Assembly (NCBI GenBank): GCA_003218375.1
Contig: QHNH01000018.1
Coordinates: forward strand, 66,169 to 104,243
Direction of reading: 5' to 3'
Length of the DNA stretch: 38,075 nt
DNA from: Verrucomicrobiota bacterium
GTDB lineage: Bacteria > Verrucomicrobiota > Verrucomicrobiia > Chthoniobacterales > UBA10450
Below the pieces are notes generated by a model. It was not told the origin of the DNA. It saw nothing but the letters and a program-made list of their open reading frames with translations, and did no database searches. Positions 6,988-17,712 of this stretch are shown here, one piece after another (positions within the stretch are counted from its first letter, which is position 1; each line of letters begins with the position of its first letter). Both the position numbers and the translations under genes were made by a program.

Positions 6988-9192
6988 GTGGGGCAGCCTG
7001 TTAGCAATACCGCCCCCACCAAATTTATGCAGGGAAAACCGCCGCCGAACCAGGCCGCAAAAGGACCGCCATCGTCACCCTCTGGGATGGCGCCGCAATC
7101 GCCACCGGGACAAGCTCCGCCATCGCCGCCCGGCGGGTTGCTGGGAAAGGCGCCGCCCGCAGGCGCTGACTTGAAACGAAGAGGTCGTGGCGGCGCGGGC
7201 GTGCAGTTGAGCGACGTCGGCTGGGGCAAGATTTTCAAGCTCGGTTGGAAACTGCTGAGCTACTTCAAATTTCTCGCGATCGGCTATTGCCTGATGATGT
7301 TGGTACAGAACTGCGTGAATCTCGGCGGCTCGCAGCTCCTCGGAGAAGTAACCAAGGCGCTCAACAGTACCGTGAGGGCACCTGCGCCCGCGCAGGATAC
7401 AACAGCCACTGCGACGACGACGATCGCCCCATCGAACGCAAACACGCCGTCGAATCCACCCGCACCGCCCGCGGCGCCGAAGAGCCGCCTGATTTTTTTC
7501 GCGGTGTTGTGGGCAATTTTCGCGCTCGCCGCATTGGGCATCGGCCTCCCAATGCGAGCCATCTCGACGAAACTCGATATGGCGCTTTCGAACAAACTGC
7601 GTAGCCAGCTTTTCGCCCGGATGCTGCGCCAATCGCCGGAGTTTTATCACGACCACGAATCGGGTGAGCTGAATGCGGTGGTGAACCAGTTCACCGTCGA
7701 GGCGTCGATGACGCTGCGGCAGGTGAGCGTCGACATGCTGTTGCAGGTGGTAACGCTCGCCATCACAGTCGGCCTCCTCATCTACAACTTCCAGATGGAT
7801 GGACCGCCGCCGACGATATTTGGCGTGGCGATTCCGCCGGCCGCGATCCCGCTCGCGATCGTCCTCTTCGCGTTCATCTCGCCGTGGATAACGGGCAAAC
7901 TTTCGAACAAAGTCCGCGACGTCTCGCGCGATATGCAGGGAAAAATGGTCGCGCTCAACAGCCTGGTCACGGGCGCGATGCAATCGCCGGAGGAAATCCA
8001 GGCGATGGAGGCCGAGCCGATGTTCGTGGCGAAGCACGACAAGCAACTGCTTTCGCTCCTGAAATCGCGGATCAAAAACACGCTGACCATGGAATACATG
8101 GGATTGATCAGCGGTCTGCCGAGCTGGCTCGTGCAGGTGGTGTTGCTCGCGTTCGGGGTGTATACGGCGTATCGCTCCGGCGATGCCGAGGCGGCGGGAA
8201 AAGTCGTCGCGATCTTTCTTCTCGCCCCGCAATTGATGGGGCCCATCCAGGCGCTCTCGGTTTATCTCATCATGGCGGGCAGCGCGTGGCCGCGGATCGA
8301 GACCGTGAACGAGATGATGGAGTCACGGGCGCGGCGCGAAGAAAAATCCGGCACAGTGAAGGTGCCGTCGGTCGAGCCGACGCTCGCTGCGAAGAACCTG
8401 ACGTTTTCGTATTCGCCCAGCGCACGAAAAATTTTCGACAACATTTCGTTTGAGATCCCGCCAGGAAAAATCACAGGGTTCGTGGCGCGGATGGGGCAGG
8501 GAAAGACGACGTTTTTCAAGCTGGCGTTGCGTTTCTACGATCCGCAGGCAGGCGAAGTGGTGCTCGGCGGGCGGCCGGTCGGCGATTATGCGTCCGACAA
8601 TCTTTACAATCACATCGCGATGATGTCGCAGTTCCCGGCCTTCTTTTACGACACGCTCCGCGCCAATATGCAGATGGCGAGAGCGAACGCGACGGACGAA
8701 GAGATCCGCGCGATTTGCGAGAAGACCGGTGTCTGGAAAATTTTGCAGGCGGGCGTCCAGGGGAATCCGCTCGATGAGGAATTCGCAGCGGCCCGGCGGC
8801 TTTCGGGCGGACAAAAGAAGCTGCTCGCGCTGACGCGGTGCCTGCTCCGGAATCCGTCGATCCTGTTCCTCGACGAGCCGACGGTCGGGATGGATAACGT
8901 CGAAAAATTTTCGATGCTCGAGATCATTAAGAACGCGCTCAAAGGCCACACGGTAATGGTGGTCGATCACGATCTGCGATGGCTCATGCCGTTCTGCGAT
9001 TACTTCGTCGTGCTCGACAACGGAAAGATCGCGGAACAAGGCACAGCGCAGGAGTTGCTCCAGCGCGGCGGATTATTTGCCGAACTTTATCACGCAGAGG
9101 ACGCGAAGCCGGCAGGGGACGACGCCCACACCTCGGCGCCGCCGCCGCAAATGGCCGGGGCAGGGCTCTCGGGAAAAGCGCGGCCGGGGTGA
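6988..9192 (+). CDS. ABC exporter, fused membrane and ATPase domains
   Basis: This 734-residue half-transporter. Residues 1-75 are Pro/Gly/Ser-rich and unstructured. Membrane segments follow at about 90-115, 168-190, 250-272, 282-303, 370-395 and 402-425. A second Pro/Ala-rich loop lies at 130-162. The ATPase domain is at about 460-705: Walker A ARMGQGKTTFF (first Gly replaced by Ala), signature RRLSGGQKKL, Walker B ILFLDEPT, D-loop VGMD and switch histidine VVDHDLR. No C39 peptidase domain is present. GTG 6988 is used as start; ATG 7027 is an alternative that keeps all domains. Three small Cys-containing ORFs follow on the same strand, the first coupled to its stop. It may export them. Lipid or drug export is the other option. 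Confidence 0.82.
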   Translation: MGQPVSNTAPTKFMQGKPPPNQAAKGPPSSPSGMAPQSPPGQAPPSPPGGLLGKAPPAGADLKRRGRGGAGVQLSDVGWGKIFKLGWKLLSYFKFLAIGYCLMMLVQNCVNLGGSQLLGEVTKALNSTVRAPAPAQDTTATATTTIAPSNANTPSNPPAPPAAPKSRLIFFAVLWAIFALAALGIGLPMRAISTKLDMALSNKLRSQLFARMLRQSPEFYHDHESGELNAVVNQFTVEASMTLRQVSVDMLLQVVTLAITVGLLIYNFQMDGPPPTIFGVAIPPAAIPLAIVLFAFISPWITGKLSNKVRDVSRDMQGKMVALNSLVTGAMQSPEEIQAMEAEPMFVAKHDKQLLSLLKSRIKNTLTMEYMGLISGLPSWLVQVVLLAFGVYTAYRSGDAEAAGKVVAIFLLAPQLMGPIQALSVYLIMAGSAWPRIETVNEMMESRARREEKSGTVKVPSVEPTLAAKNLTFSYSPSARKIFDNISFEIPPGKITGFVARMGQGKTTFFKLALRFYDPQAGEVVLGGRPVGDYASDNLYNHIAMMSQFPAFFYDTLRANMQMARANATDEEIRAICEKTGVWKILQAGVQGNPLDEEFAAARRLSGGQKKLLALTRCLLRNPSILFLDEPTVGMDNVEKFSMLEIIKNALKGHTVMVVDHDLRWLMPFCDYFVVLDNGKIAEQGTAQELLQRGGLFAELYHAEDAKPAGDDAHTSAPPPQMAGAGLSGKARPG

Positions 9193-9197
9193 TTCGG

Positions 9198-9338
9198 ATG
9201 CAAGCGGAACCAATGCGTGGGAAAAAATTCGCAAGAAGCGGAAGGAAACAAGTCTTATCAAAGTTGGCGAGGCAAGGGGAGAAAAAGGTTCTTGAAGCGC
9301 CACGAGAGAAAATGAAAATTTGCTGCTGCATCGAGTGA
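9198..9338 (+). CDS. Possible 46-residue basic peptide ending in three cysteines
   Basis: The ATG at 9198 lies 5 bp after the ABC exporter stop, and GGGGTGA overlapping that stop can serve as ribosome binding site. The product is strongly basic (KKFARSGRKQVLSKLARQG) and ends in KMKICCCIE. No family is recognised. A basic leader-like part, a Cys-rich tail and coupling to an exporter would fit a secreted or processed peptide. Such a short frame can also arise by chance in this reading frame, which is open further upstream inside the ABC gene. Nothing but context and the ribosome binding site supports it. Confidence 0.35.
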   Translation: MQAEPMRGKKFARSGRKQVLSKLARQGEKKVLEAPREKMKICCCIE

Positions 9339-9386
9339 TGTGACGGCGAGTCAAAAAGAAACAAAGAAACGAAAGGAAAGTTAGTT

Positions 9387-9584
9387 ATGGCTGACGAAAA
9401 AACAGGCAAAAAGCCCTCGGATCAAGGTGGCGGCGGCGCGGAAAAAGGCGCGGATGCCGGAGAAGCGGGCGGTCGTTCGCGACAGCTGCTTTACACATGC
9501 TTCAATGACGGCGCCGGGAACTACATCGACCCAAGTTGGAGATGGTTCACCTGCTGGCGTTGCGGCGCGCTGAACTACACCTAA
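9387..9584 (+). CDS. Small Cys/Trp-rich protein, tandem paralogue A
   Basis: 65 residues, with AAGGA 9 bp before the ATG. The N-terminal half is low-complexity (Gly/Lys/Ala/Asp). The C-terminal 32 residues (LLYTCFNDGAGNYIDPSWRW and then FTCWRCGALNYT) are shared with the second copy at 9686. Three cysteines (C..., CxxC) and four Trp/Tyr positions are kept, so this could be a tiny zinc-binding knuckle missing a fourth ligand, or a disulfide-bonded or modified peptide. There is no signal peptide. It follows the ABC exporter on the same strand. I do not recognise the family. Confidence 0.65.
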   Translation: MADEKTGKKPSDQGGGGAEKGADAGEAGGRSRQLLYTCFNDGAGNYIDPSWRWFTCWRCGALNYT

Positions 9585-9604
9585 GCAAACAGTTACGCGG
9601 AAGA

Positions 9605-9671
9605 GCAGGGTTCCATGCCCTGCGCTTCCTAGCCTGGCCTCGACAACTCCACGCGGAGGACGAGGTCAGGC
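9605..9671 (+). promoter_or_regulatory. Two stem-loops between the tandem small-protein genes
   Basis: The first is GCAGGG (9605-9610) pairing with CCCTGC (9618-9623). The second is GCCTGGCCTCG (9632-9642) pairing with CGAGGTCAGGC (9661-9671), with one G-T mismatch position in 11. The second ends next to the ribosome binding region (AAGGAAG) of the downstream gene. They could control relative expression of the two small proteins. There is no T-run, so they are not obvious terminators. Confidence 0.45.
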
Positions 9672-9685
9672 AAGGAAGAAATAAT

Positions 9686-9889
9686 ATGGCTGGCGAAAAA
9701 TCGGGCACGAAACCGGAGAAACCCGGCGGTCTTGGGATGGAGAAGGACCCGCCCGCCCCAGTCGAAGCCGCGCCGCGCTCGAAGCGGATGGCTTACATCT
9801 GCTGGAACGACGGCGCCTCAAACTTCGTCGAGCCCGGCTGGGAATGGTTCACCTGCTGGCGCTGCGGCTCTCTGGTTTACACCGCGTAA
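9686..9889 (+). CDS. Small Cys/Trp-rich protein, tandem paralogue B
   Basis: 67 residues from ATG 9686, with AAGGAAG 7-9 bp upstream. A longer open frame from 9536 exists but crosses the previous gene and the stem-loops, and the match to paralogue A begins at this ATG (MAGEKSG against MADEKTG). The C-terminal part reads YICWNDGASNFVEPGWEW then FTCWRCGSLVYTA, with Cys, Trp, Asn-Asp-Gly-Ala and CWRCG identical to paralogue A. The middle (EKPGGLGMEKDPPAPVEAA) is not conserved, so selection acts on the C-terminal 30 residues. Function unknown. Confidence 0.68.
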   Translation: MAGEKSGTKPEKPGGLGMEKDPPAPVEAAPRSKRMAYICWNDGASNFVEPGWEWFTCWRCGSLVYTA

Positions 9890-10005
9890 ATACCGGCCCC
9901 CAGAGAGCGATCTTCAGGCTGATTCTTCGTTCTGGCGCTGACGCGCGGAATTCTCGCCTCCGCCGATCGACGACGCGTCCGCGCAGTTGAATTTCCCTCG
10001 ACTTT

Positions 10006-10030
10006 GCGGCGAACCGCCGCATCGTTTTGT
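10006..10030 (+). terminator. Weak terminator-like hairpin
   Basis: GCGGCG-AAC-CGCCGC (10006-10020) is followed by ATCGTTTTGTT. It could end the exporter/small-protein transcript. The stem is only 6 bp and the T-run is interrupted. Confidence 0.35.
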
Positions 10031-10111
10031 TGCCACTAAATTGAAACATTTCGTCCGGATCTGCGTTTACACAGCTGGCACGCCGATCCGCCCCGATTCC
10101 TTATTACCACC

Positions 10112-12169
10112 ATGATCCTTCAAAACCGTTTCGCGCTGATCACCTGTCTTCTGTTTGTTTCCTCCATTGTTTTTCTGCACGCCGGCACTCCAGAGGCCGA
10201 TCTTGGTGTAACAAAGTCGGGCCCGGGGCAGGCGGCGGCGGGCGCTAATATCACTTATACTATCGAGGTCATAAACGGCGGCCCGGACGGCGCGGCCAAC
10301 GCCACCATGAATGATCCGCTGCCTCCGGAAACGACATTCGTCTCCCTCTCTGCGCCCAACGGCTGGCAATGCACTACTCCCGCCGCGGGTTCGAACGGGA
10401 CGGTCAATTGCGTCAACAGCAGTTTCCCGGCAGGAGGCGACGATCTCTTCACGCTCGTGGTCAAAATCGATCCCCAGACGCCGGCGGGCACCTTCATTAC
10501 CAACACGGCGACCGTTAGCACACAGTCCTTGGATCCGAACGACGAAAACAATAGCTCAAGCGCGGCAACTTTTGTTCCCGAGCCGAGCGCAGACCTTGGA
10601 GTAACGAAGACGGTCGATTCCGATCAGACGCTGGCCAATTCGAACGTTACCTTCACGATCCAGGTAACGAACTCCGGCCCGGATCCCGCATCGACGGTGG
10701 CTTTGAATGACACCCTTCCAGGTGACATGACGTTTGTTTCAGAACAACAAACGTCCGGGCCGACCTGGACGTGTTCCACCCCGAATGTTGGGTCGGGCGG
10801 AACCGTCAGTTGTGCCGTGGCCAGTTTGCCGGTCAGCAGCAACAGCACCTTTAGTATCACCGGACATATTCCATCCGGAAAGCCGGCCGGGACCGTTTAC
10901 GCAAATACGGCCTCCGTTACTTCAGCCAATGATCCGAACTCAGAAAATGATAGTTCCGACGCTTCTACTTCCGTCGTCGCCGCGGCGCCAACACTTACCA
11001 CCCAGGCATCGGGCCCGGTCTTGTTAGGCGGATCGATCTCGGATACGGCAACGCTCAGCGGCGGATTTTCCGCGACCGGCACGCTCAACTTTTTTGTCTA
11101 CGGTCCTGATGATTCAACCTGCAGCAGCAGCCCGACGTATATTTCGACCGCCGACGTAGCCGGGGATGGGCAGTACAATTCGGCTCCGTTCGTCCCGAGT
11201 GCACCAGGCACCTACCGTTTCGTAGCCAGCTATAGCGGCGATAATAATAACAAGGCGACGGCCAACGCCTGCGGCGATCCAAGCGAGTCGGTGGTGGTCA
11301 CTGCGCCGACGCCAAGTCCGACTCCGACCGCCACCGCCACGGCTACGGCGACCGCCACGGCTACGGCTACCCCGACTGCTACACCTACGGCCACACCGAC
11401 CGCGACACCTACAGCGACGCCTTCTCAGGCGATAAACCTCTCCACCAGATTGCGGACCGAGATCGGCGATAAAGTCATGATCGGCGGGTTCATCATCACG
11501 GGTAATGTCCCCAAAGCCGTGGTCCTGCGAGGACTCGGGCCCTCCCTGAGCCGTTTTGGACTCACCGATTTGTTACAGGATCCGGTGCTCGAGCTTCGCG
11601 GTAATAGCGGCAACCTCATTTACCGAAACGATAACTGGAAGGACACCCAGCGAAGTCTGATCGAAGGCACGCCGTTCCAGCCTACGGACGATCGCGAGTC
11701 GGTCATTGTTACCACCTTGCCGCCTACGGCCTACACCATGATTTTGACCGGCAAGAACCAGACGACCGGCATCGGGGCCGTCGAAGTCTACGACAATAAT
11801 CAGGCTGTCGATTCGCAACTGGCGAACATGAGCACGCGCGGATTTGTCCAGACCCAGGACAAAGTGATGATTGGAGGTTTCACCCTGGGAGTAAGTAACA
11901 ACCCGACCCGGATTGCGATCCGGGGGCTAGGTCCATCCCTGGCTCAATCGGGCTTAAGCAATGTCCTGGCCGATCCTACCCTGGAGCTGCGTGATGCGAA
12001 CGGCGCTCTCCTGGTAGCGAACGACGACTGGCAAAGCGATCCAGTGTCAGCTGCGCAGCTAACCGCTAACGGGCTGGCCCTTCCGAATCCGAAGGAAGCA
12101 GGCATCTTCACGCTCCTGCCCGGTGGCCAGTTCACCGCCATCCTTGCCGGCAAGAACGGCGGCATATGA
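10112..12169 (+). CDS. Large secreted protein: two DUF11 repeats, Ig-like domain, Thr-rich linker, paired C-terminal modules (ends at a premature TGA)
   Basis: 685 residues. A signal peptide (FALITCLLFVSSIVFLHAG) is followed by two DUF11-type repeats at about 29-150 (ADLGVTKSGPGQ, TYTIEVINGGPDGA) and 157-280 (ADLGVTKTVDSD, TFTIQVTNSGPDPA). An Ig-like domain covers 285-395 and a TATATPT-type linker about 398-437. Two copies of a module of about 125 residues start at 440 (NLSTRLRTEIGDKVMIGGFI) and 566 (NMSTRGFVQTQDKVMIGGFT). The second module stops at NGG-Ile-TGA, while the same frame continues with VGLVEIYNVR to a TAG at 12200-12202. That is the normal end of this module in the neighbouring genes. 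So GGA to TGA is a likely nonsense change removing 11 residues, or a sequencing error. Confidence 0.85.
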   Translation: MILQNRFALITCLLFVSSIVFLHAGTPEADLGVTKSGPGQAAAGANITYTIEVINGGPDGAANATMNDPLPPETTFVSLSAPNGWQCTTPAAGSNGTVNCVNSSFPAGGDDLFTLVVKIDPQTPAGTFITNTATVSTQSLDPNDENNSSSAATFVPEPSADLGVTKTVDSDQTLANSNVTFTIQVTNSGPDPASTVALNDTLPGDMTFVSEQQTSGPTWTCSTPNVGSGGTVSCAVASLPVSSNSTFSITGHIPSGKPAGTVYANTASVTSANDPNSENDSSDASTSVVAAAPTLTTQASGPVLLGGSISDTATLSGGFSATGTLNFFVYGPDDSTCSSSPTYISTADVAGDGQYNSAPFVPSAPGTYRFVASYSGDNNNKATANACGDPSESVVVTAPTPSPTPTATATATATATATATPTATPTATPTATPTATPSQAINLSTRLRTEIGDKVMIGGFIITGNVPKAVVLRGLGPSLSRFGLTDLLQDPVLELRGNSGNLIYRNDNWKDTQRSLIEGTPFQPTDDRESVIVTTLPPTAYTMILTGKNQTTGIGAVEVYDNNQAVDSQLANMSTRGFVQTQDKVMIGGFTLGVSNNPTRIAIRGLGPSLAQSGLSNVLADPTLELRDANGALLVANDDWQSDPVSAAQLTANGLALPNPKEAGIFTLLPGGQFTAILAGKNGGI

Positions 12170-12219: not shown

Positions 12220-14439
12220 TTAGTGGAGGTTATAAACTTCTACGAGAGCCACGCCAGTGCCACCATTCTGCCCCCTTACCACGGCCGTGTAAGGGCCGGG
12301 AGAAAGCGTGGTCACGATCGCTGATTCCAAATCATTCGCCGGCGGAATCGTGGTAGCTTTCACCGCGCTTTCCTGGGATTGCTGGGTCTGATCGTTGACT
12401 TTCCAATTATCATTGGTCGCGATGGTGCCGCCGTTGCCGTCGTGAAGCTCCAGGGTCGGATCCGGCAACGCGCCTTGGAGCCCAGAGCTGGCGAGTGATG
12501 GGCCCACGGCGCGGATCAGCACGGTAGCTTTTCCATCGGCGTTGTTTCCTCCGACAATCAAGCCGCCGATCATGACATTGTCATTCGTTTCCACAAATCC
12601 TCGGCTACTGATGTTGGCCAGCTCGGAGTTCGCTGCCTGGCCCAGGTCGTACACTTCTACGACCCCGATGCCGGTTCCGCCGTTCTTTCCTGAGAGGATG
12701 GCCGTGTAGCTTCCTGGACTTAACGTAGTGACAATGGCGGATTCCAGATCGTTCGCCGGAGGGATGGTCGTGGCTACTACCTCTGCCTGCTGGCTTGTCC
12801 CGTCGGAACGGGTTTTCCAATCATCGTTCGTGGCCAGGGTTGCGTTGCCCTGATGCAATTCTAAAACAGGATCGGATAGGACGGCGCCGATCCCATTAAG
12901 TGACGGTCCTATCCCCCGGATAATCATCTTTTTCGGTTCAGTCCCGCTAACAATGAAGCCAGCGATGAGAGTTTTGTCGCCGGTCTGGACGCGCATCCGG
13001 GTCGAGATGTTGAGTAAGTGCAAAGGGGGCGGCGCCACCCGAACATAATAGATGTCCTCCTCGCCGTTGAACGTCGCGGAGTAAGCCACGTTACCTCCCG
13101 CTATGTCCGAAACGATGGTGAGATAATCGCCGATCTTGTTCTGGTTAGGATAACCGAGAAAAGGATTGAATGGATCGCTCACGGCAACATTGGGCGACCA
13201 ACTGTTGCCTCCGTCGAGGCTGTAGGAGTAGAAGAGCTGGGAATCGGTGTTGTTCGCGGCATTGCGAGTATCGAGCCAGACTGCGTCGAGCCGTCCGTGG
13301 GGTGCGACCGAGAGAGTGCCAAACCAGTGCCATTTGCTGTGGTTAACAGGATCGTCGTTTATCCGGCGCGGTGAACTAAAGGTGAGTCCGCCGTCGGTGC
13401 TGCGGACAAACATCACGTCGCTTCCGGTAGTAGCTCCTCCAGGCCGAACGCTGGCCAACATGTAGATATTGTTATTCGTAGAGGCCCCCGAGCGGTCCGC
13501 GGCCAGAAAGATCTGGCCTACCAGGCCCTCGGGATTAATGAATTCGCCGCCGATAACCTGTCCTCCGAGACTTACGTTTGCAATTTGATCAAAGCTCGGC
13601 GTGACCGCGCCATTCCTGGCGTTACTCGAGCGCAGGCACCACACCTGGCCGGTATTCAAATTGACTCCGCCAATGAACAGATTGCCGTTCGCATCCACGT
13701 CGGGGGTTCCCCAGGCAGGAGAGTTTGGAAGGAAAATTGGATTCGTCCAGATGGAACCTCCATTGATAGACCGGCTGAACTGCCTACCGCCATAGTTATT
13801 GCCGGCTGTGCTCCAGCATTGGTACTGGAAGCCATGACCGCTGCTGTTGGTGTTATCGATGGTGAACCATTGCTTGTCGCCGCCGGTTGCTTGTCCGAGG
13901 TTAGTCCAGGACTGGCCGCCATCGAGCGAGCGCCACATATTGTCGAAGAATGTCGTCAGAAGACTGAGGTAGAAGAAATTGCCCAGCTCGTTCGACGATA
14001 AGACGGGATCGCTCCGGAAGACATTGTTCTCCAGCACGCCGGGAAAAGTCCAGGAGACACCGCTATTACTGGTGAACCCCCAACCGGCCTGGCGAAAGTT
14101 TGAGCTGACGCTATCGAATTGCCTCCAGCCTATCACCATCTTGTTGCGATCGGTCGGGTCTACCGAGATCGATGGCTCGTTGGCCGCGTCACCCGTGATG
14201 TTCTGGCCGTTGGCGTCGACGTTCACCTGGTAACTCGTGAAAGGACCGTGCTGCGAGATCATGCCAGCCGAGACGCCGGTCCCCCAGATGAACATGGGAG
14301 GGTCGCCGTAGCGTTCAAGCTCCTCGGTGGGGAGAGGCTTGAGGGCGATCGCCTGGCCGAAAGCAATGCTGGCTCCCAGCGAGAGAACCAAGCTAAGAAG
14401 AAGCTTCGCCTTTAACACCCTATGGCACCTTAATCGCAA
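12220..14439 (-). CDS. Secreted sialidase-like beta-propeller (Asp-box) protein with paired C-terminal modules
   Basis: 739 residues with an N-terminal signal (AKLLLSLVLSLGASIAFGQ). Residues 80-475 form a beta-propeller with several Asp-box/BNR repeats: SNSGVSWT (about 123), SLDGGQSWT (170), STDGGLTFS (348) and SLDGGNSWS (408). Asp-box propellers occur in sialidases and many non-enzymatic exported proteins; the Arg triad of sialidases could not be placed, so no enzyme activity is claimed. Two C-terminal modules follow at about 476-600 (ISTRMRVQTGDKTLIAGFIV) and 605-739 (ISSRGFVETNDNVMIGGLIV), each ending in a VEVYDLG/VEVYNLH strand. The gene faces the preceding one; their stops are 18-51 bp apart. 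Confidence 0.83.
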   Translation of the reverse strand: MRLRCHRVLKAKLLLSLVLSLGASIAFGQAIALKPLPTEELERYGDPPMFIWGTGVSAGMISQHGPFTSYQVNVDANGQNITGDAANEPSISVDPTDRNKMVIGWRQFDSVSSNFRQAGWGFTSNSGVSWTFPGVLENNVFRSDPVLSSNELGNFFYLSLLTTFFDNMWRSLDGGQSWTNLGQATGGDKQWFTIDNTNSSGHGFQYQCWSTAGNNYGGRQFSRSINGGSIWTNPIFLPNSPAWGTPDVDANGNLFIGGVNLNTGQVWCLRSSNARNGAVTPSFDQIANVSLGGQVIGGEFINPEGLVGQIFLAADRSGASTNNNIYMLASVRPGGATTGSDVMFVRSTDGGLTFSSPRRINDDPVNHSKWHWFGTLSVAPHGRLDAVWLDTRNAANNTDSQLFYSYSLDGGNSWSPNVAVSDPFNPFLGYPNQNKIGDYLTIVSDIAGGNVAYSATFNGEEDIYYVRVAPPPLHLLNISTRMRVQTGDKTLIAGFIVSGTEPKKMIIRGIGPSLNGIGAVLSDPVLELHQGNATLATNDDWKTRSDGTSQQAEVVATTIPPANDLESAIVTTLSPGSYTAILSGKNGGTGIGVVEVYDLGQAANSELANISSRGFVETNDNVMIGGLIVGGNNADGKATVLIRAVGPSLASSGLQGALPDPTLELHDGNGGTIATNDNWKVNDQTQQSQESAVKATTIPPANDLESAIVTTLSPGPYTAVVRGQNGGTGVALVEVYNLH

Positions 14440-14461: not shown

Positions 14462-17400
14462 CTATTGGCCGAGATCGTAGACCTCTACCAAACCTATTCC
14501 GGTGCTGTTATTCTCGCCCGCCAGTAAAGCTGTGTAACGGCCTGGCGGCAGGGTGACTGCTATCCCGGATTCCAGTTTATTGGAAGGCGCCAGACCTGCC
14601 GCCATTAACTTCGCGGCCTGGACTGGGTCATCCTGCCAGTCGTTGTTAGTGGCAAGCAGAACTCCGTCGCCATCGCGCAGCTCCAAGGTGGGATTAGGCA
14701 AAGGATTGTTCACACCTGAAGAAGCGAGACTGGGACCGAGACCCCGAATCACGATACGGTCTGCACCGTTCTGGTTTCCAAGGATGAATCCGGCGATCGT
14801 AATATCGGCGCCGGTCTGGACAAAAGCGCGCGTGCTGATATTTGCCAGTTTTCCGGCTGGCTGGTTGAGATCGTAAACCTCTACCAGCGCGACCCCGGTC
14901 CCGCCGTTGTTCCCTCTCACAATTGCCGTGTAATTTCCAGGCGTCAGCGTAGTGTCGATGGCGGATTCCAGGTCGTTCACGGGTGGAATGCCTGTCGCCT
15001 TGATGCTTTCCTCCTGAGTATCTCGCCAGTTGTTGTTCGTAGCGAACGGGAAGGGATTGGAGTGGTAAAGCTCGAGCACAGGATCGGCAAGGGCGTTCGG
15101 CACTCCCGCTTGGGTGAGCGAAGGCCCTATGGCCCGGATGAGGACGTGTTTGGGAGTGACCCCGGTGATGATGAAGCCGCCGATGCCGACATTATCGCCT
15201 TTCTCCACGCGCATCCTGGTGGAGAGATTGATCGGTTGAGCCGGGATAGCTGTCGGGGTAGCAGTTGGAGTAGCAGTAGCGGTCGGCGTGGAAGTAGGAG
15301 TGGCTGTCGCTGTAGGTGTAGATGTAGGTGTCGAGGTGGCTGTCGCCGTGGGACTGGGACTCGGCGTTGGAGTCGGAGTCGGTGCGACCACGCTTTGACT
15401 TGTGGTAGAGCTACTCAAGGCCGACAGGGTATCGGATTGATAGGTGGCGGTGATCGTGTGGCTGCCCAGGCTCAAGTTTGAAGTGCTAAAGGAGGCGCTC
15501 CCGTTACTTAAAGAAATCTGGGCCAGGGGACTCGGTCCTTCCTGGAACGTAACCATGCCGGTGGGGGTGACCGATCCGCCCGTGACCGTGGCCGTAAACG
15601 AGACCGATTGCCCGATGGCCGAGGGATTGGGAGATGAAGTCAGCGTCGTAGTCGTCGCGAAAGCATGGATTTTTTGGAGAAGCGCGGCGTTGCCGGTGGG
15701 GAAGTTCGCGCCGCCGCTGTAACTGGCAGTGATGAGATGGTTGCCGAGGGAGCCGTTTCCCGCCGCAAGGCCCGAAGTCGTAACCGAGGCCTGGCCGTTC
15801 CCGTCCAGCGGAACATTAGTAGCCAGGGTAGTGCTGATAGGTGTGAGGTCCTGGTAAGTGAAATCCACAAACGTGACGGTGCCGGAAGGCGTGGGTGCCG
15901 GTGAGGCTGGGTTTGAAACTGTGGCCGTGAAGGTCACAGGGGCGCCCGTAACAAAGGTGCGAACATCCGGCGCGCTGGTGGCGAGAGTTACGTTAACGCC
16001 CACGAGAGGGCCCAGGGCAAACAGCGTTCCGCCATTAAGCGTGTAAACGGTTCCATCGGGCCCAATCAGACTGGGCACGTAAGGCTCGCCGATACCTGCG
16101 GTGAGCGTCACCGCCTGGGCAAACGAATTCGTCGCGACATTCCAACGATAAAGCCGGCCGTCTTCGTTTGGGACGAAGATGCTATTGGTCGCCGGGTTTA
16201 CCGCGGCGGTGTTGATGCACCACTCCCGCACGGCGTAAGGTAACTGCGGCGAATAGTTCTCATCGTCCGGGGTAGGGCCAATGAGGGTGAGCACTTCACG
16301 CATTTCGACAAAGCCGGGTGCGGAGGAATGCGGATCGATCTGGGTAGCGTTTGGATCGAGCAGCGCGACCCGGTTCACGCCGTCGCCGTCGCTCCCGCTA
16401 AACGCGTAGTTGTTGTATTTACAGAAAAGAAGATAGGAAGAACTGCCCTGGTAAGAAGGCACCATCGAAGCCGGCACGATCGCGGCCGTATAATCCCAGC
16501 CGAATGCGCCGGAAAGTTTCTGAGTAGCTAGATCACTGCTGAAACGGAGAAGGAATCCGCGAAAGCCGTCTCCCGGATTACCCAGGATCCCAAAGTAAAC
16601 ATCGTTATCCGGCGCGACGGTAGGTGAGGCGGTGCTATCGTCCGTAACTGTAGCCGGGTTGTTATTGCGCGGGTCGCTCAACGCGACGCGGTACTTGGTC
16701 GCGAGTGTCGTACTATTCAGGCCGAGGAGATAGGAAGCGGAGGTGGCGCTGGACTTGGCCACCACATAAAGAGTCGCTTCATCATTGCTCAGCGCCGGTG
16801 CGGAATTATGCGAGTCTCGGTTGATGCTGCCATCGTTCGCGGCGGGTCCTGCCAGGACATAGGTCCCGTTGCCGTTGGCATCGATCCGGGCGAATCCACT
16901 TTGGGTCGTGTTTAAAGGCGCCGGCGCCGTGCCTTGAACGCGGAATCCGAAAAAGACGTTGCCGCTGGTGTCCGGCGTCAGCGGCGTGTTAATGAAAATA
17001 GTGGAGTTGTAAGCGGTGGCATTCCCGAGGTAGTTCGCGAGCGTGGTGTAGAACACTTCCTGCACCGGTGGACCGTGGGCGGCGGAATCCGGGTTATCGA
17101 TGTGGTAAACCGTGCCGCCGGCTCCGGCATAGTAGAGACGAGTCCCGAAAGCGCCGGTCGTTAGACAAGGGTTGTAAACCGGGATCCAACTATGGGCCGG
17201 CAGGATGTAGTCGGTGGCCACCGAATACTTCGCCGCGCCGGTGGTCCCATCGAAAGCATCAACCCGGAACGCATCCCCGGCTATCTTCACTGGGGCGAGG
17301 ACAGTGTTGGCCGCAGTCACCAGCGGAGCGCCGTAATGCGCGAGCGAGCCGGTGTTATTAAAATCGATCGTCGCCGACCAGCGAATCCGATTGAGACTTG

Positions 17401-17569
17401 GCACGGCTGGCTGGTAGACCGCCGTGTGTTGGGCGTTGCCGGCAAAGGAAGGAACGCTCCCGGCCGGAATGGAAACACTCGGCGTGCGGCCCCTGTCTCC
17501 GCCTAAGAGCAGGAGCGGCAGGACCGCGATCCCGAACCCAAGCGAAAATTTCCCAAGCCGTATCCTCAT
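14462..17569 (-). CDS. Very large secreted beta-propeller/Ig-like protein with paired C-terminal modules
   Basis: 1035 residues from ATG 17569. An earlier start at 17698 would add 43 residues unlike an export signal and reach almost to the tRNA; 17569 puts the signal peptide (FSLGFGIAVLPLLLLGG) at the N-terminus. Residues 45-520 look like a PQQ-type/WD-like propeller (repeated 'G..YAGAGGTVYHID', 'DGRLYRWNVATNSF', 'GPDGTVYTLNGGTLFALG'). Two bacterial Ig-like domains lie at 525-633 and 636-730 (SGTVTFVDF.., TGMVTFQEG..). A Thr/Pro/Ala/Ser linker follows at 733-775. Two C-terminal modules are at 778-905 and 908-1035 (LSTRMRVEKGDNVGIGGFII, ISTRAFVQTGADITIAGFIL). It is codirectional with the preceding propeller gene, 22 bp apart, so they may be cotranscribed. 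Confidence 0.83.
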   Translation of the reverse strand: MRIRLGKFSLGFGIAVLPLLLLGGDRGRTPSVSIPAGSVPSFAGNAQHTAVYQPAVPSLNRIRWSATIDFNNTGSLAHYGAPLVTAANTVLAPVKIAGDAFRVDAFDGTTGAAKYSVATDYILPAHSWIPVYNPCLTTGAFGTRLYYAGAGGTVYHIDNPDSAAHGPPVQEVFYTTLANYLGNATAYNSTIFINTPLTPDTSGNVFFGFRVQGTAPAPLNTTQSGFARIDANGNGTYVLAGPAANDGSINRDSHNSAPALSNDEATLYVVAKSSATSASYLLGLNSTTLATKYRVALSDPRNNNPATVTDDSTASPTVAPDNDVYFGILGNPGDGFRGFLLRFSSDLATQKLSGAFGWDYTAAIVPASMVPSYQGSSSYLLFCKYNNYAFSGSDGDGVNRVALLDPNATQIDPHSSAPGFVEMREVLTLIGPTPDDENYSPQLPYAVREWCINTAAVNPATNSIFVPNEDGRLYRWNVATNSFAQAVTLTAGIGEPYVPSLIGPDGTVYTLNGGTLFALGPLVGVNVTLATSAPDVRTFVTGAPVTFTATVSNPASPAPTPSGTVTFVDFTYQDLTPISTTLATNVPLDGNGQASVTTSGLAAGNGSLGNHLITASYSGGANFPTGNAALLQKIHAFATTTTLTSSPNPSAIGQSVSFTATVTGGSVTPTGMVTFQEGPSPLAQISLSNGSASFSTSNLSLGSHTITATYQSDTLSALSSSTTSQSVVAPTPTPTPSPSPTATATSTPTSTPTATATPTSTPTATATPTATPTAIPAQPINLSTRMRVEKGDNVGIGGFIITGVTPKHVLIRAIGPSLTQAGVPNALADPVLELYHSNPFPFATNNNWRDTQEESIKATGIPPVNDLESAIDTTLTPGNYTAIVRGNNGGTGVALVEVYDLNQPAGKLANISTRAFVQTGADITIAGFILGNQNGADRIVIRGLGPSLASSGVNNPLPNPTLELRDGDGVLLATNNDWQDDPVQAAKLMAAGLAPSNKLESGIAVTLPPGRYTALLAGENNSTGIGLVEVYDLGQ

Positions 17570-17712
17570 ATTGATTACCAGCCCCTGCGGCCTCGATTTT
17601 GAGACGTGACAACTTAAGGAGGCGTCTCGTCGATTCAAGCCACGCACGCGCGTCTGGTGAAACTGTGTGTTGGACGTCCCGCGTCGCATATTGGACAATC
17701 CGTTCCGGCAAC

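What the first reader, a model, noticed from the sequence alone, without database searches (positions are those of the whole stretch)
6988..9889. ABC exporter followed by three small Cys-containing ORFs: possible peptide export cassette
A fused ABC exporter without peptidase domain is followed on the same strand, with coupling or good ribosome binding sites, by a 46-residue ORF ending KICCCIE and two tandem paralogues with a shared 32-residue Cys/Trp-rich end. Small Cys-rich products next to an exporter recall ribosomally made peptides, but the conserved part is the C-terminus rather than a leader, and no modifying enzyme is adjacent.
Basis: partly seen in the sequence, partly recalled or inferred. 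Interest (0 to 1): 0.62.

Follow-up and report, generated by a model that had tools for sequence, protein, structure and literature searches.

The report
Exporter paired with zinc-ribbon mini-proteins
A soil bacterium carries a membrane pump gene followed by two very small, probably zinc-binding proteins; in every genome I searched, the pump and this small-protein family occur together, so they probably form an undescribed system in which the pump exports the small proteins, although export itself has not been shown.

Summary
Confirmed in part and extended. The ABC exporter (6988-9192, likely start 7027) and the two Cys/Trp-rich small proteins (9387-9584, 9686-9889) are real. The 46-residue "KICCCIE" ORF is not a gene: its frame is broken in all three close relatives, and its 3' part overlies a 5' hairpin upstream of small protein 1. 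The small proteins belong to an undescribed family: 59-89 aa, low-complexity N-terminus, an E[V/A]xG[R/H] box, then a C-terminal zinc-ribbon-like core (CxxC/D...CxxCG). The window copies have CxxD in place of the first CxxC. The genus carries 4-9 scattered members per genome but one exporter. Exporter and family co-occur almost perfectly: 16 of 17 exporter genomes among 213 of the order (the 17th has the peptides too, missed by the search), and exactly the same 2 of 387 across the phylum. All 20 exporter loci whose downstream flank is held have 1-4 members directly downstream. No modifying enzyme, C39 peptidase or named family is present. Best reading: a dedicated export cassette in which one peptidase-less ABC transporter exports many zinc-ribbon microproteins recognised by the EVxGR box. 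Co-occurrence, adjacency and purifying selection are shown; export and activity are inferred.

The parts
6988..9192 (+). ABC exporter (TMD-NBD half transporter), 734 aa from GTG 6988; likely true start ATG 7027; P/G-rich N-terminal extension; no C39 peptidase
   Evidence: (intact Walker A GQGKTT, LSGGQ, LFLDEP, VVDHD)
9198..9338 (+). 46-aa ORF ending KICCCIE: judged NOT a gene (frame not conserved)
   Evidence: indels and stops in G001, G005 and G006 orthologous DNA
9318..9351 (+). 5' hairpin ATTTGCTGCTGCATC-GAGT-GATGTGACGGCGAGT upstream of small protein 1; possible mRNA leader structure or operator
   Evidence: z=-2.1 in the window, to -5.7 in relatives; compensatory changes; core found only at this family's genes
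9387..9584 (+). small protein 1 (65 aa), zinc-ribbon-like, CxxD variant
9462..9476 (+). EAGGR box of small protein 1 (family motif E[V/A]xG[R/H])
9498..9563 (+). zinc-ribbon-like core of small protein 1, CFND...CWRC
9599..9671 (+). two strong stem-loops between small proteins 1 and 2 (9599-9629, 9632-9671), kept in position in relatives
   Evidence: z=-6.3
9686..9889 (+). small protein 2 (67 aa), tandem paralogue, box EAAPR, core CWND...CWRC
9764..9778 (+). EAAPR box of small protein 2

Best explanation
A dedicated microprotein export cassette. The ABC half-transporter forms a homodimer in the inner membrane and, using ATP, exports a family of 59-89-residue proteins: the two encoded downstream and several paralogues scattered round the chromosome. 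The exporter recognises the disordered N-terminal half, most likely the E[V/A]xG[R/H] box just before the folded part. The C-terminal part is a zinc-ribbon-like mini-domain that is the functional product outside the cytoplasm, most likely a secreted antagonism or signalling peptide held by zinc (or by disulfides after export). Shown: co-occurrence, adjacency, domain content, conserved box, purifying selection and a shared upstream hairpin. Inferred: export, recognition by the box, zinc binding and extracellular activity.
For: Order level: exporter in 17 of 213 genomes, small family in 20, 16 shared (Fisher p about 2e-19). The 17th exporter genome, G115, has three members beside the exporter (L170/L097). 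The four family-only hits are E about 1e-4 matches inside 178-341 aa ORFs of different layout. Phylum level, even draw of 387 genomes: exporter and family each in the same two genomes, adjacent in both. Every exporter locus whose downstream flank is held (20 of 20) has one to four members downstream, mostly 20-280 nt after the exporter stop, while 27 distant ABC loci (305 kb) have none. In G002 the exporter contig ends inside the hairpin and shares 22 nt with the contig carrying the small genes. One exporter but 4-9 small genes per genome in the genus. All 65 members collected carry a recognisable box of this shape 4-14 residues before the first Cys; in 37 diverse members its E is kept in 92% and its G and R each in 89%. 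The core profile matches zinc ribbons of known structure (RpoM-2 2e-5, L37Ae 1e-3), and 17 of 37 members match Pfam Zn_ribbon_3 weakly.
Against: No export has been measured. No outer-membrane partner, immunity gene or maturation protease is conserved beside it. Zinc ribbons are usually cytosolic. One family ribbon is fused to the C-terminus of a 1758-aa STAND protein that is presumably cytosolic. Unlike most bacteriocins and RiPPs, the core is more conserved than the leader within the genus. AlphaFold models are only moderately confident (core pLDDT about 80, pTM 0.43-0.51), and Foldseek and VIA-align matches are weak.
Confidence: 0.58

Rival explanations
1. The small zinc-ribbon proteins are cytosolic partners or regulators. 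They bind the exporter or other machinery through the ribbon or the EVxGR box, and the exporter transports something else (lipid, drug or another peptide).
For: Zinc ribbons and two-CPxCG microproteins are typically intracellular (e.g. Haloferax HVO_0758, PMC10716476). One family ribbon ends a STAND NTPase. Unlinked paralogues lie beside unrelated genes.
Against: One exporter but 4-9 scattered small genes per genome is the pattern of a carrier with many cargos rather than of a stoichiometric subunit. The fusion is a single case. The long disordered N-terminus with a conserved box close to the fold looks like a targeting segment.
Confidence: 0.28
2. Metal handling: the small proteins are zinc or other metal carriers (metallothionein-like) and the exporter removes the metal-loaded peptide or uses it to sense metal.
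For: Ribbon-type ligand sets; ABCB-type exporter, a fold that includes Atm1-like transporters.
Against: 28 of 65 members have CxxD instead of CxxC, and one G168 copy has lost most ligands, odd for a metal buffer. No metal regulators are conserved nearby. A single site per peptide is a poor sponge.
Confidence: 0.08
3. Ordinary RiPP or bacteriocin cluster whose modifying enzymes are encoded elsewhere, with Cys/Trp residues modified rather than binding zinc.
For: Precursor-like size, leader plus C-terminal core, tandem copies, exporter; Cys/Trp/Tyr-rich cores.
Against: No modifying enzyme conserved beside the exporter loci. The paired CxxC...CxxC spacing and zinc-ribbon profile hits point to metal binding. 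Leader more variable than core.
Confidence: 0.06

Closest known systems
Peptidase-containing ABC transporters (PCATs) with double-glycine leader peptides (class II bacteriocin/microcin export; TIGR01193, TIGR03796)
   Same: One ABC half-transporter encoded beside small precursor-like proteins with a disordered N-terminus and a conserved motif before a compact C-terminus
   Different: No C39 peptidase domain; box is E[V/A]xG[R/H] rather than a double-glycine leader; core is zinc-ribbon-like; scores far below those model cut-offs
Type I secretion ABC transporters (TIGR03375 LssB, HlyB)
   Same: Best NCBIfam resemblance of the exporter (230 bits)
   Different: Below the 693-bit cut-off; no membrane-fusion or outer-membrane partner seen beside it
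Two-CPxCG zinc-finger microproteins (e.g. HVO_0758, HVO_2753 of Haloferax; PMC10716476)
   Same: Under about 90 aa with two CxxC knuckles; profile and Foldseek touch HVO_2753-like proteins
   Different: Here there is an N-terminal EVxGR segment, a strict exporter partner, and frequent loss of one Cys to Asp
LysW amino-group carrier protein
   Same: Small zinc-ribbon protein; top Foldseek hit of the four-Cys member, rmsd 1.4 over 31 residues, not significant (E 1.4)
   Different: No EDWGE C-terminus in these sequences; ribbon C-terminal rather than N-terminal

Membership tests
PCAT / double-glycine bacteriocin export | N-terminal C39 peptidase domain in the ABC transporter | tested here: not met
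   only ABC_membrane and ABC_tran; the N-terminus is a P/G-rich extension
PCAT / double-glycine bacteriocin export | precursors with a GG leader motif | tested here: inconclusive
   EAGGR/EVGGR in 31 of 65, but EVAGR, EVEGR, EVSAH and others also occur; the GG is not invariant
RiPP cluster | modifying enzyme encoded with the precursor | tested here: not met
   no conserved neighbour except the small proteins in the exporter loci examined; unlinked enzymes not excluded
Type I secretion system | exporter passes the family model | tested here: not met
   230 bits against a cut-off of 693
Type I secretion system | membrane-fusion and outer-membrane partners | tested here: inconclusive
   none recognised among neighbours, but partners can be encoded elsewhere and were not searched genome-wide
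Zinc ribbon | two CxxC knuckles 10-20 residues apart in a small beta fold | tested here: met
   37 of 65 members have CxxC...CxxC; profile hit to zinc ribbons E 2e-5; model with 4-5 short strands
Zinc ribbon | zinc bound by all four ligands in the window copies | not testable with these tools
   window copies are CxxD...CxxC; Asp could be a ligand, but binding is not known
ABCB-type exporter | TMD plus NBD with intact Walker A/B, signature and H-loop | tested here: met

The most novel reading that the evidence does not exclude
A previously undescribed class of secreted metallo-microproteins. One peptidase-less ABC exporter serves a dispersed, diversifying repertoire of zinc-ribbon peptides recognised by an EVxGR box, used for competition or communication by uncultured soil Verrucomicrobiota, with expression controlled by a shared 5' hairpin.
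Probability: 0.4. Interest if true: 0.8.

Novelty: new variant of a known kind. Interest (0 to 1): 0.64.

Why it matters
If the exporter secretes these proteins, this would be a new type of exported peptide, built on a folded zinc ribbon rather than disulfides or enzyme-made rings, with a single transporter serving many unlinked cargo genes. It occurs in uncultured soil bacteria (permafrost, Antarctic and grassland Spartobacteria/Chthoniobacterales), whose secreted peptides are almost unknown. The family has no Pfam, NCBIfam or PADLOC model, and two proteins are enough to test it in E. coli.

Tried and rejected
46-aa ORF as a third peptide: rejected, frame not conserved. Lone or housekeeping exporter: rejected by exact co-occurrence. 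Widely spread small protein: rejected; only generic zinc-ribbon hits (E about 1e-4, ribbon segment only) occur outside exporter genomes. Viral origin: one scan of viral contigs found nothing, but it was made with a wrong reading frame and says nothing; it was not repeated. Plasmid spread of the exporter: no match in PLSDB. Known defence protein: the PADLOC match of the exporter is only to the ATPase part of mad3, and the small proteins have none. LysW-like carrier: no EDWGE tail. In the phylum of the 'Acidobacteria' MAG (199 genomes) only that MAG has a full member, so misbinning or lateral transfer cannot be told apart. Literature searches found no description of such a pair. Fold searches gave no significant match; that absence says little.

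Full report
Observation. The window carries an ABC exporter (6988-9192 +), a 46-codon ORF (9198-9338) and two tandem small genes (9387-9584, 9686-9889). Pfam sees only ABC_membrane and ABC_tran in the exporter and nothing above cut-off in the small proteins. Orthologues of the exporter begin at the ATG equivalent to 7027.

The 46-aa ORF is not a gene. Aligned intergenic DNA from three species of the same genus keeps the sequence but not the frame. What is conserved there is a hairpin, ATTTGCTGCTGCATC-GAGT-GATGTGACGGCGAGT (9318-9351), which encodes 'ICCCIE' by accident. Across 16 upstream regions the helix shows changes on both sides at 8 of 15 pairs, more than in any of 500 shuffles, although the sequences are related and the alignment is short. 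Its 13-nt core occurs 11 times in eight genomes of the genus. Ten of these lie about 45 nt upstream of a family member. The eleventh is at the end of the G002 contig just after its exporter, and that contig shares 22 nt with the start of the contig carrying the small genes. The pattern read backwards occurs 0 times.

The small proteins are a family. The window's genome has five members, six with the broader profile. The eight genomes of the genus have 4-9 each. Members share a disordered N-terminus (MADEKxGKKP... in this genus, KxIEVxxGxK... in others), an E[V/A]xG[R/H] box, and a C-terminal C-x2-C/D-G ... C-x2-C-G core that ends within 6-12 residues. Of 65 distinct sequences 37 have four Cys and 28, from this genus, have CxxD...CxxC. 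The family profile finds zinc ribbons in the PDB (RpoM-2 2e-5; L37Ae, S27e about 1e-3), and 17 of 37 members weakly match Zn_ribbon_3. AlphaFold gives an unstructured N-terminus and a small beta core (pLDDT about 80). Fold matches include zinc ribbons (ZitP, LysW, HVO_2753, RNA polymerase I A12 subunit) but are not significant. dN/dS is about 0.04-0.2.

The exporter and the family go together. Among 58 relatives both occur in the same ten genomes. In 213 genomes of the order the exporter occurs in 17 and the family in 20, with 16 shared (p about 2e-19; genomes are related, so this is a guide). The one apparent exception has three undetected members beside its exporter (L170). In an even draw of 387 genomes of the phylum the two occur in exactly the same two genomes and are adjacent in both. 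A named collection gave the exporter in Spartobacteria palsa MAGs, Antarctic and other Chthoniobacterales/Verrucomicrobia MAGs, and single MAGs labelled Acidobacteria and Akkermansia; every orthologue with its downstream flank held is followed by one to four members. Twenty-seven distant ABC loci, 305 kb, have none. No other neighbour is conserved beyond close relatives.

Mechanism. The simplest reading is a carrier with many cargos: one exporter, several unlinked small genes, a conserved box in a flexible N-terminus, and a compact C-terminal product. Export, the role of the box and the activity outside the cell are inferences. The main rival is a cytosolic partner or regulator role for the ribbons; a C-terminal family ribbon on a 1758-aa STAND protein in one genome is its best support.

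Comparison. It works like a PCAT or bacteriocin cassette but fails its defining C39 domain. It fails the T1SS model cut-off. It lacks adjacent RiPP enzymes. The small proteins resemble two-CxxC microproteins of archaea but with a strict exporter partner. No curated family covers exporter or peptides. I rate it a new variant of a known kind, with a fair chance of being a new class of exported metallo-microprotein.

Noticed in passing
L035:4760-10036 (G005): A 1758-aa ORF with an ISSPGDV-type N-terminus, nSTAND1 and WD40 repeats ends with a family zinc ribbon as its last ~35 residues: either a true domain fusion or a recombination.
   Followed up: partly
L047:10577-11980, L052:13541-17116, L069:4089-5900: Some unlinked paralogues lie near conflict-type genes (SIR2-TIR, caspase-NACHT-FGE, TIR-TPR), while others lie near housekeeping genes.
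   Followed up: partly
L051, L052, L055, L056, L057, L162, L163 upstream of the small genes: A second class of paralogues shares a promoter-like TTGCAA...CGTATTA motif ending about 6-9 nt before the ATG, which would give almost leaderless mRNA.
   Followed up: no
window 9599-9671: Two strong consecutive stem-loops lie between small genes 1 and 2 (z = -6.3), kept in position in relatives.
   Followed up: partly
window 10112-12169, 12220-14439, 14462-17698: Three neighbouring large proteins share similarity (often ending in TGxxLVEVYxL) with many proteins near other family members; the first has DUF11 repeats. Probably surface proteins; not tied to the cassette.
   Followed up: no
L149 about 9919-10110 (G168): The first tandem copy after the exporter keeps leader and EVSGR box but has lost most ribbon cysteines.
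   Followed up: no
L168 and L169 exporters (G108, G111): These two exporter genes carry in-frame stops (pseudogenes or assembly errors), yet the downstream small gene is intact.
   Followed up: no
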